From Actinomycetes bacterium (lineage in GTDB: Bacteria > Actinomycetota > Aquicultoria > Aquicultorales > Aquicultoraceae), in contig JAJYQA010000009.1 of the NCBI GenBank assembly GCA_021794835.1, positions 1 to 64,000 on the forward strand: DNA of 64,000 nucleotides, in the 5' to 3' direction. The notes beneath the pieces were generated by a model. It was not told the origin of the DNA. It did not search any database and saw nothing but the letters and a program-made list of their open reading frames with translations. Shown piece after piece: positions 28,833 through 31,062 of the stretch. Numbering within the stretch: position 1 is the stretch's first letter; every line of letters starts with the position of its first letter. The position numbers and the translations under genes were made by a program.

Positions 28833-28861
28833 TTGACACTCGAACATTTGTTTGGTATTCT
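28833..28861 (+). promoter_or_regulatory. Strong sigma-70 promoter of the methyltransferase with an SOS-like box in the spacer
   Basis: TTGACA (28833-28838) and TATTCT (28856-28861) are 17 bp apart. Within the spacer, CGAACATTTGTTTG (28841-28854) resembles the Gram-positive LexA (DinR) box CGAAC-N4-GTTCG, with one clear deviation in the right half (GTTT for GTTC). A repressor there would block RNA polymerase. Whether LexA binds is unknown. Confidence 0.55.
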
Positions 28862-28961
28862 ATAGCTATATTAGCCAATTTAGCTATTAGGAGACACCCA
28901 TAGTCACTAAAAGCACAGGCTCAAAATAACTTCAGTAGGATTTTTGGATTAGAGGAGTTAA

Positions 28962-30338
28962 ATGGCACATATAGCAAATTCTAGAAACAGCCAACTTGAA
29001 TTATTTGAGCCAACCGGGAGAGTAGATAAATCACAGAGTAAGAATGGTGTCGGGTTTAGTGACCCAGCATTTGCTAGTAACAAAACACTCCCCGTTCATC
29101 GATGGGTACCATGGATAGCTGGTTTCTCAAGTGACTTTGTAAGAGATGCCTTAAGCCTATATTTGAATGGAGAGGGTACTGTCTTAGACCCTTTCTCAGG
29201 TGTTGGCACAACGCTTATCGAAAGTATATTGCAAGGCTTTAATGTAATTGGTTTCGAGATTAACCCATATGCAGCTCTAGCTTGCCGAGTAAAAGTAAAC
29301 GCTCATCAAATTGGACTAAATAACCTATACAGTGCAATCCAAGGGCTTAAAAAATTCTATAAGGATAAGGCCTCTTCTGATTATAAACCGCAAAGCCTCC
29401 CCCCAGAGGGATTTAAGACGCGAGCAGAGTTTTATAGCCCTAAGGTTTTAAGAAAGGTCTTAATTATTCAAGATTTTATTAGCTGTGTAGAAGACCTTAT
29501 GGTGAGAGATTTATTTAGATTAGCCTTTGCATCCACAATGGTTAGATACTCCAATTATTCATACGAGCCTAGTTTGGGCCGCCGAGCAAGTGCCGGAAAA
29601 GAAGATATATTGGATTTCCCCGTCGGAGAAATAATTTTGAATAAGCTTATCGAAATGGCTGAGGACATAAAATGGCTGGAGTGGAAAGTGCCTAGCTCAG
29701 GAGCAACCGCAAGAATTATTAATGCTTCTTTCTTTGAACATCAAGCTCATATCGAGCCCAGCTCAATCGACATAATCATCACTTCCCCCCCCTACCTCAA
29801 TAACTACCATTACAATAGAAATACAAGACCGCAACTATATTGGCTTGGTTATGCAGAAACACCTCGAGACCTAAAGACTCTTGAGGATTCAAACTTCGGG
29901 AAGTATTGGCAGACAGTCCGGAGTCAGGGGCGTTTAGAACTTGGATTCTCCTTGCCGGGCACAGATTTAGAGGATAACTTGGATACGCTTAGAGCTTTGA
30001 ATGTTGAGAGAGGTATCTATGGAGGCAATGGTTGGGCTAATTATGCCGTATCTTACTTCAAAGATTGCTATAGGTTTGCGCAAGGAATAAGCTACGTGCT
30101 AAAACCAGGTGGTAAAGCGCTAGTTGTAATCGGAAACAGTATACTGCAAGGGATATTAATCCCTACAGATTATTACTTTGGCAAAATTGCCGAACTAATT
30201 GGCCTTAAATTAGTAGACATTCATATCCCAAGAGAAACTCGGGTTGGGAATAGTATTATACAGTCAGCCGTTCGTGTAACAAAAGCAAAAGCTTCTCATC
30301 AACTTTACGAAGCTGTTGTAGAACTAGAGAAGCCTTGA
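28962..30338 (+). CDS. DNA amino-methyltransferase (N4-cytosine/N6-adenine type), restriction-modification partner
   Basis: The 458-aa enzyme has the AdoMet motif LDPFSGVGTTLIES (residues 75-88, motif I) and the catalytic ITSPPYLNNYHYNR (from 273, motif IV). TSPPY is most frequent in m4C methyltransferases. Motif I precedes motif IV, unlike the common beta-class order, so the domain is arranged in the alpha- or gamma-like way. The N-terminal HRWVPWIAGFS is shared with type II methylases of this kind. It protects host DNA from the neighbouring nuclease. The two genes converge with stops almost touching at 30338/30339. The pair interrupts housekeeping genes and its base composition looks AT-richer than its surroundings, suggesting horizontal gain. 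Confidence 0.85.
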   Translation: MAHIANSRNSQLELFEPTGRVDKSQSKNGVGFSDPAFASNKTLPVHRWVPWIAGFSSDFVRDALSLYLNGEGTVLDPFSGVGTTLIESILQGFNVIGFEINPYAALACRVKVNAHQIGLNNLYSAIQGLKKFYKDKASSDYKPQSLPPEGFKTRAEFYSPKVLRKVLIIQDFISCVEDLMVRDLFRLAFASTMVRYSNYSYEPSLGRRASAGKEDILDFPVGEIILNKLIEMAEDIKWLEWKVPSSGATARIINASFFEHQAHIEPSSIDIIITSPPYLNNYHYNRNTRPQLYWLGYAETPRDLKTLEDSNFGKYWQTVRSQGRLELGFSLPGTDLEDNLDTLRALNVERGIYGGNGWANYAVSYFKDCYRFAQGISYVLKPGGKALVVIGNSILQGILIPTDYYFGKIAELIGLKLVDIHIPRETRVGNSIIQSAVRVTKAKASHQLYEAVVELEKP

Positions 30339-30956
30339 TTATGAGAGGGTATATTGAACTTTTTCAATAATATCACCTAGTGGTGGTGAAACACCCGTTA
30401 ACTTCTCTGCCCAAGGTCGACCGGGGTGCAAAACATCCCATTCTGATTTTGCCTGGTTATAACGGCCAGAACCAGGATCATGATTTCCAAAACCATCAAC
30501 GACTGTGTTCCAAAGTGGAGTATATCTTCTAATAAGTTCAGCCTCTACTGGAACAACCAAGTCGCTCTCAGCATCCTTAAGAATCATAAACCGGCACATG
30601 AAATCATCAAGGCTCAGATTAGAAGTTTGCTGTATGCTCCTGGCATGCTCTCGAAGTCTATTATACAAATCTGGCGTCTCTGAAATCTGAGTTCTGGCAG
30701 TTCGCCAACCTGGAGATACGGCCTTACCCACGTAAATTGGCTGATTCATATTCTCGCGGTTTAATTTAGCAATTGGCAGATAGAATTCAAAAGAGCCGGT
30801 ATAGTATAAAGCATAAATACCACCACCAATAAACCTACCTGGTGGTGGCAGTTTGTGTACAGGTGTTTCATTAAAAAAACTTATCGCGTCCTCCACTACA
30901 CTTTGAAACTTAGGCGAGTGAAAAACATGCAAACTAAAATCTGAATGTATCTCCAT
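30339..30956 (-). CDS. Eco29kI-family GIY-YIG restriction endonuclease
   Basis: The 205-aa nuclease has the split GIY-YIG signature: GGGIYALYYTG (GIY at 46-48) and PIYVGKA (YVG at 75-77). The conserved Arg/His of NRLREHARSI (100-104), the metal-binding Glu in VEAELIRRYTPLWN and the following Asn150, with FGNHDPGSGRYNQAKSEWD, match the type II enzyme Eco29kI (which cuts CCGCGG). It probably cuts palindromic DNA as a homodimer. The ATG at 30956 is chosen because GAGG is 5 nt upstream; a GTG at 30971 is an alternative. In Eco29kI itself the partner is a C5-cytosine methylase, whereas here the neighbour is an amino-methylase, so the site specificity may differ. Confidence 0.82.
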   Translation of the reverse strand: MEIHSDFSLHVFHSPKFQSVVEDAISFFNETPVHKLPPPGRFIGGGIYALYYTGSFEFYLPIAKLNRENMNQPIYVGKAVSPGWRTARTQISETPDLYNRLREHARSIQQTSNLSLDDFMCRFMILKDAESDLVVPVEAELIRRYTPLWNTVVDGFGNHDPGSGRYNQAKSEWDVLHPGRPWAEKLTGVSPPLGDIIEKVQYTLS

Positions 30957-31062
30957 GCTAACCTCGCTCACAAATACCCCCCTGGGAATTATGTGGTAGC
31001 ACAATTAGCAATCAATTGTAACTTAGAGAAGCTATTTATGTACGACGAAAGGGTGTCAGGAA

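What the first reader, a model, noticed from the sequence alone, without database searches (positions are those of the whole stretch)
28833..31004. Eco29kI-type GIY-YIG restriction enzyme paired with an amino-methyltransferase
The nuclease keeps GIY, YVG, Arg/His, Glu and Asn of the Eco29kI group. The convergent partner is a TSPPY/DPFSGVGT methylase, not the C5-cytosine methylase of the classical systems. Stop codons are adjacent (30338/30339). This mix could mean a different recognition sequence or a swapped protective mark.
Basis: partly seen in the sequence, partly recalled or inferred. Interest (0 to 1): 0.55.

Follow-up and report, generated by a model that had tools for sequence, protein, structure and literature searches.

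The report
Eco29kI-type cutter with m4C guard
Two neighbouring genes encode a DNA-cutting enzyme related to Eco29kI and, as its protector, an enzyme related to one that puts a different methyl mark (N4 instead of C5 of cytosine) on the same base; such a pair is already published from Deinococcus, but the sampling here suggests it is more widespread than reported.

Summary
Window 28962-30338(+) encodes a 458-aa amino-methyltransferase and 30339-31004(-) an Eco29kI-family GIY-YIG nuclease, with abutting stop codons. All six R.Eco29kI active-site residues are kept. The methyltransferase is 51% identical to M.DraR1 of Deinococcus radiodurans, reported to make m4C at the second C of CCGCGG (PMC6712171, passages). 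M.Eco29kI marks that same C as m5C (PMC3039593, passages). Best reading: a CCGCGG restriction-modification system with m4C as protective mark. No m5C methyltransferase was found in the genome.

The pairing is published as the Deinococcus DraI system and called rare (3 m4C against 310 m5C; PMC10855626). My sampling disagrees: of 80 loci fetched with the methyltransferase, 64 carry the nuclease or a remnant, 49 of them convergent, in 15 named phyla. Starting from the nuclease, 12 of 36 assignable genomes were m4C-paired. R.Eco29kI groups with 45 m4C-paired nucleases, though one smaller tree disagrees; this points to partner exchange. Activity is inferred. It is a new member of a known kind.

The parts
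28833..28861 (+). promoter-like site of the methyltransferase gene (TTGACA, 17 bases, TATTCT, TG before the second hexamer)
   Evidence: consensus scan, 10 of 12; 9 sites found in the scanned stretch against a mean of 6.5 in shuffles, so weak on its own
28862..28887 (.). inverted repeat (two 11-base arms, 4-base loop) just after the -10 hexamer; possible operator
   Evidence: 5% of 40 randomised sequences score as high; no shared element in 30 relatives, of which 2 (L021, L028) have a repeat at or below that fraction and 28 are at 20% or more
28962..30338 (+). M.DraR1-type amino-methyltransferase, predicted m4C on the second C of CCGCGG
   Evidence: predicted fold mean pLDDT 86.5
30336..30341 (.). 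the two abutting stop codons of the convergent pair
30339..30956 (-). Eco29kI-type GIY-YIG restriction endonuclease (probable start ATG at 30956)
30957..31004 (-). 5' extension of the nuclease ORF to a TTG; probably leader, not coding
   Evidence: R.Eco29kI aligns from the internal ATG; GAGG before it
30988..31015 (-). weak promoter-like site of the nuclease gene (TTGATT, 16 bases, CATAAT)
   Evidence: consensus scan, 9 of 12

Best explanation
A two-gene Type II restriction-modification system. The nuclease is predicted to bind the palindrome CCGCGG as a dimer and cut it with the GIY-YIG active site. The methyltransferase is predicted to put a methyl group on N4 of the second cytosine of each strand (C-m4C-GCGG), so that the cell's own sites are not cut while incoming unmethylated DNA is. 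This is the base that M.Eco29kI marks, at a different atom (N4 instead of C5). Shown here: the genes, their layout, the intact active sites, the family placement, the failure to detect an m5C methyltransferase in the genome, and the recurrence of the same pair in other genomes. Inferred from relatives: the recognition site, the kind of mark and the activity.
For: Nuclease: RE_Eco29kI 1.2e-65; 112 of 206 aligned residues identical to R.Eco29kI and 74 of 200 to R.DraR1, both reported CCGCGG enzymes (PMC1952068, PMC10855626); six of six active residues. Methyltransferase: 219 of 429 aligned residues identical to M.DraR1, and ten of ten residues that PMC6712171 names as conserved. That paper (passages read) reports knock-out, SMRT sequencing and SacII protection for m4C at the second C of CCGCGG. 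Own genome: no PF00145 hit and no second methyltransferase of this type. Linkage: of the best 80 of 155 relatives of the methyltransferase, 64 have an Eco29kI-type nuclease hit on the same locus, 49 convergent and 15 codirectional, remnants included; 44 of the 49 are tight pairs with a nuclease of at least 150 bits.
Against: No activity or methylation data were available to me for this organism. CCGCGG is not specially avoided in 362 kb of the own genome, the window included (observed/expected 0.83, rank 17 of 64 palindromes), nor in the window (11 found, 13.7 expected), so site avoidance gives no support. 16 of the 80 related methyltransferases have no nuclease hit beside them, so the methyltransferase can stand alone. 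Target-recognition segments were not compared separately.
Confidence: 0.87

Rival explanations
1. The pair is a genuine system but recognises a different or relaxed sequence, so the new partner reflects a new specificity.
For: Specificity can drift at about 50% identity (general knowledge); the nuclease family holds divergent branches. The window's target-recognition segment was not compared on its own.
Against: R.Eco29kI (inside the window's 52-row set) and R.DraR1 (just outside it, in the 55-row set) bracket the window nuclease in the tree and both are reported to cut CCGCGG; the nearest characterised methyltransferase has the same site (PMC6712171, PMC10855626). Eleven positions of the C-terminal block DGFGNHDPGSGR...WD..HPGR are invariant in 34 aligned nucleases.
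Confidence: 0.08
2. The methyltransferase acts elsewhere (orphan-like or m6A) and the nuclease is guarded by another enzyme or is silent.
For: 16 of 80 related methyltransferases have no nuclease hit. Downstream neighbours of 10 of these 16 were run against Pfam: seven are metabolic, transport or phosphoesterase genes, one is a DUF3014 protein, one had no hit, and one (L086) is a different restriction enzyme, NgoMIV.
Against: No m5C methyltransferase found in the genome; 64 of 80 related loci carry both genes or a remnant of the nuclease; the stop codons abut and both frames are intact.
Confidence: 0.05
3. A decaying pair with no activity.
For: Nuclease remnants exist in relatives: L016 and L074, and a 33-40 aa trace in L059; the nuclease was found in none of the 59 other genomes, so the pair is recent or sporadic in this lineage.
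Against: Both frames are full length, with all six catalytic residues of the nuclease and the ten named residues of the methyltransferase.
Confidence: 0.06

Closest known systems
DraI (R.DraR1-M.DraR1) of Deinococcus radiodurans plasmid CP1 (PMC10855626, PMC6712171)
   Same: Eco29kI-family nuclease guarded by an alpha-class amino-methyltransferase making m4C on the second C of CCGCGG; methyltransferase 51% identical to the window's
   Different: There the nuclease gene is the 10th ORF upstream of the methyltransferase (PMC10855626); here the two are adjacent and convergent. The window nuclease is nearer to R.Eco29kI (112 of 206) than to R.DraR1 (74 of 200)
Eco29kI system of plasmid pECO29
   Same: Nuclease family, active site, 54% identity; predicted same site
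   Different: Its methyltransferase is an m5C enzyme, and the order is nuclease then methyltransferase on one strand (PMC3039593 passages)
Haloarcula virus HJTV-2 genes gp44-gp46
   Same: Convergent Eco29kI nuclease and N4-cytosine methyltransferase (147 of 415 identical)
   Different: Archaeal virus; a Trm112-family gene lies between the two, of which no other case turned up among 169 loci
Roseiflexus castenholzii and Roseiflexus sp. RS-1 putative m4C systems (named in PMC10855626; their sequences were not fetched here)
   Same: Putative m4C CCGCGG systems; the RS-1 one is described as a fusion.
   Different: Not compared directly

Membership tests
Eco29kI-type GIY-YIG Type II restriction enzymes | RE_Eco29kI domain (PF09517) | tested here: met
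   E 1.2e-65, 220.8 bits against cut-off 30.8
Eco29kI-type GIY-YIG Type II restriction enzymes | active residues Y49, Y76, R104, H108, E142, N154 (PMC1952068, passages) | tested here: met
   all six present
Eco29kI-type GIY-YIG Type II restriction enzymes | cuts CCGC/GG | not testable with these tools
   needs the enzyme
classical Eco29kI system (nuclease plus m5C methyltransferase) | m5C methyltransferase partner | tested here: not met
   partner is N6_N4_Mtase-type; no PF00145 hit in the genome
M.DraR1-type alpha-class m4C methyltransferase | FxGxG motif near the N-terminus, SPPY towards the C-terminus, homology over full length | tested here: met
   49.3% identity over 93% in tblastn; DPFSGVGT then TSPPY; ten of ten named residues
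M.DraR1-type alpha-class m4C methyltransferase | m4C on the second C of CCGCGG | not testable with these tools
   needs methylation data
DraI-type m4C restriction-modification system | Eco29kI-family nuclease with an M.DraR1-type methyltransferase | tested here: met
DraI-type m4C restriction-modification system | nuclease blocked by m4C but not by m5C at the site | not testable with these tools
   reported for R.DraR1 (PMC10855626); not known for the window enzyme

The most novel reading that the evidence does not exclude
The m4C-guarded, convergent form is an old and widespread form of this nuclease branch in bacteria and archaea outside the well-sequenced isolates. R.Eco29kI, the prototype, comes from within it and exchanged its m4C guard for an m5C guard that marks the same base at a different atom.
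Probability: 0.4. Interest if true: 0.55.

Novelty: new member of a known kind. Interest (0 to 1): 0.38.

Why it matters
It shows one restriction-enzyme family paired with two chemically different protective marks, predicted on the same base, which makes exchange of the guard enzyme directly testable: the nucleases can be challenged with m4C- and m5C-marked CCGCGG. It also suggests that the published frequency of m4C CCGCGG systems (3 against 310 m5C) reflects which organisms have been sequenced. R.DraR1 is reported to cut m5C-marked sites (PMC10855626), so an m4C guard might let a host attack DNA coming from m5C-marking hosts.

Tried and rejected
Site avoidance as a test of recognition: no signal. 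Operator in front of the methyltransferase gene: the window has an inverted repeat, but 30 relatives show no shared element and 28 of them are at chance. Insertion site: of the 12 relatives, G003 has the neighbouring ABC permease at 50% identity (in two pieces) and G002 a distant match at 24%; in G003 the transporter pair is kept and no restriction-modification gene lies within the 1.5 kb held beyond the permease, but the window's other flanking genes are not there either, so no clean empty site could be shown. A hidden nuclease in the 16 loci without an HMM hit: tblastn found only a 33-40 aa remnant in L059; downstream ORFs of 10 of the 16 were run against Pfam, those of four more (L030, L070, L092, L093) were only looked at, and two (L073, L089) were not. 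A solved close homologue of the methyltransferase: Foldseek gives distant matches only (best E 2e-05, archaeal Trm11; E. coli Dam next), so no structure settles the base it marks. G+C as a sign of acquisition: 0.385-0.432 over the pair against 0.465 in the sampled genome, but the downstream flank is about as low (0.37-0.455), so it says little.

Nesting of R.Eco29kI inside the m4C clade is not settled. The full tree puts it there, beside L041 (96/90). A 75-row tree that kept the long R.DraR1 and Calothrix rows put the Eco29kI lineage with the main m5C clade instead (91/65, unstarred, 174 of 200 bootstrap trees). A 102-row tree without the long rows gave 45 m4C-convergent rows plus the Eco29kI lineage at 100/100, with those 45 alone on one side in 45 of 200 bootstrap trees. 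The groups of the AU tests were named after the tree was seen, so their p-values are optimistic. Rows dropped: 20 fragmentary or weak nuclease hits and 10 duplicate loci, 26 loci and one further row, chosen. In one search five m4C-convergent rows (L166, L167, L080, L085, L057) were counted with the 'other' rows, since one search places them outside the set.

Full report
What is there. The window holds two intact convergent genes: a methyltransferase at 28962-30338(+) and a nuclease at 30339-31004(-) whose stop codons abut. The nuclease belongs to the Eco29kI family (Pfam RE_Eco29kI E 1.2e-65; solved R.Eco29kI E 2.2e-71) and keeps all six residues of the R.Eco29kI active site (residues from passages of PMC1952068). 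Its likely start is the ATG at 30956, since R.Eco29kI aligns from there and GAGG lies before it. The methyltransferase carries DPFSGVGT and TSPPY and hits N6_N4_Mtase. The nuclease was found in none of the 59 other genomes (genus to phylum) and in 2 of the 295 others of the own phylum, both beside an m5C methyltransferase, which fits acquisition from outside. Low G+C is no clear sign of it, because the downstream flank is about as low.

What it most likely does. The best characterised relative of the methyltransferase is M.DraR1 of Deinococcus radiodurans (49.3% over 93% of the query; 219 of 429 aligned residues). PMC6712171 (passages read) reports that deleting it removes m4C at the second C of CCGCGG and that it protects from SacII. 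All ten residues that paper names as conserved are present. R.Eco29kI cuts CCGC/GG, and M.Eco29kI marks the second C as m5C (PMC3039593, passages read). The window pair is therefore predicted to protect the same base as Eco29kI but at N4.

What is already known. The same combination was published as the DraI system (PMC10855626; abstract, sections 2.1, 3, 4.3 and legends read). There the nuclease is the 10th ORF upstream of the methyltransferase; the authors count 310 m5C systems and three m4C ones and call the m4C system a rarity. My searches of the held library listed no other paper that, by title and start of abstract, describes this pairing; one search showed 20 of 31 papers, one search showed 10 of 19, one search found none, most listed papers were not opened, and no supplementary files were read. 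So absence from print is not shown.

How common it is. A scan of 84,980 species genomes with the methyltransferase alignment gave 155 relatives, of which the best 80 were kept. An Eco29kI-type nuclease hit (E up to 1e-3, remnants included) lies on 64 of the 80 loci: 49 convergent, 15 codirectional, 16 without. Of the 49, 44 are tight with a nuclease of at least 150 bits; the other five are L016, L024, L074, L083 and L094. The distance between stop codons is exactly zero in 10 of the 49 and within -35 to +21 bases in 47 of 49. The 49 come from 15 named phyla, two of them archaeal, plus two loci without a named phylum. These loci were chosen for likeness to the window, so the share is not a population estimate. 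A sampling that starts from the nuclease (PF09517 in even draws from six phyla, 1680 genomes in all) gave 45 genomes with a hit. Three of these (G000, G061, G065) had been selected beforehand and are left out. Partners of the other 42: 12 m4C, 24 m5C, 6 unassigned within the 1.5 kb flanks. By group, named from the title of the locus that led to it (m4C, m5C, unassigned): phylum of G068, Pseudomonadota 0, 11, 1; own phylum 0, 2, 0; phylum of G060, Chloroflexota 8, 6, 5; phylum of G062, Cyanobacteriota 0, 2, 0; phylum of G061, Nitrospirota 4, 3, 0; archaeal phylum of G065 none besides G065. The 12 include broken or fused genes (L152, L153, L155, L156). In viral contigs, 23 nuclease loci were found: 20 m5C, one m4C (HJTV-2) and two unassigned. 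So the m4C form is common in two of the six phyla and was not seen in the 12 sampled Pseudomonadota genomes with the nuclease. Many of the genomes are metagenome assemblies, so single loci may be misbinned.

Evolution of the pairing. In a tree of 129 nucleases the window lies in a supported set of 52 rows: 45 m4C-convergent, 6 m5C, 1 unassigned (100/92). The six are R.Eco29kI, four relatives (L125, L127, L128, L130) and the long row L133; in all six the nuclease comes first, whereas in the main m5C clade of 23 rows the methyltransferase comes first. Neither kind of pairing is one group: the starred branches force at least 7 changes for m5C, 6 for m4C-convergent and 4 for m4C-codirectional. Holding all 52 m5C-paired nucleases on one side is rejected (p-AU 0.0016), as is holding the Eco29kI lineage together with the main m5C clade (p-AU 0.0021); both groups were named after the tree was seen. 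With long rows and the insert columns removed, 45 m4C-convergent rows plus the Eco29kI lineage are one side at 100/100 and in 200 of 200 bootstrap trees, against 52 other rows that include five further m4C-convergent and the m4C-codirectional ones. A three-residue insert is present in the window, in 18 of 18 other members of the m4C part of this set that I aligned and in 5 of 5 rows of the Eco29kI lineage; it is absent from 23 of 23 rows of the main m5C clade and from R.DraR1, HJTV-2, L085, L065 and L067. Against this: a smaller tree that kept two long rows placed the Eco29kI lineage with the main m5C clade (91/65, unstarred). The tree draws the Eco29kI lineage beside a cyanobacterial m4C-paired nuclease, but the 45 m4C rows form one side alone in 45 of 200 bootstraps, so nesting and direction are open. 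Exchange of the guard enzyme at some point is well supported; a switch from m4C to m5C in the ancestor of Eco29kI is plausible but not shown.

Structure. A prediction of the methyltransferase from 29 sequences is confident (mean pLDDT 86.5, pTM 0.86; residues 1-29 below 50). Its matches in the PDB are distant, led by archaeal Trm11 and E. coli Dam; this does not fix the base it marks.

Verdict. A restriction-modification system of the published m4C DraI kind, in a compact convergent form. The window itself is a new member of a known kind; the wider result is that this kind is more common than reported and that the guard of Eco29kI-type nucleases has been exchanged.

Noticed in passing
L006 3622-3840 (Haloarcula virus HJTV-2): A Trm112-family gene sits between the m4C methyltransferase and the Eco29kI nuclease genes; the predicted fold of the window methyltransferase has Trm11, solved also with Trm112, as its best structural match. 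phmmer with it over ORFs of 40 aa or more of 169 loci found only the copies of this virus.
   Followed up: partly
L152 547-2100 and L157 544-1968: Single reading frames in two genomes of the phylum of G060 match both the nuclease and a methyltransferase model: m4C in L152, m5C in L157, i.e. apparent natural fusions with either kind of guard.
   Followed up: no
L016, L074, L059, L058, L156, L155, L158: Broken, split or remnant nuclease genes; in all but L158 beside an M.DraR1-type gene (L158 has stop codons inside and no methyltransferase hit in its flanks), suggesting repeated loss of the cutter with the guard left behind.
   Followed up: partly
L086 6541-8804: Beside a nuclease-less M.DraR1-type gene lies an NgoMIV-family restriction enzyme gene (E 7e-98) next to a second N4-type methyltransferase-like ORF (101 bits).
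   Followed up: partly
window 28862-28887: Inverted repeat directly after the -10 hexamer of the methyltransferase gene, not shared by 30 relatives; a possible self-control site.
   Followed up: partly
L003 (D. radiodurans plasmid CP1): The R.DraR1 gene lies beside a KAP-family gene and qatB/qatC defence genes.
   Followed up: no
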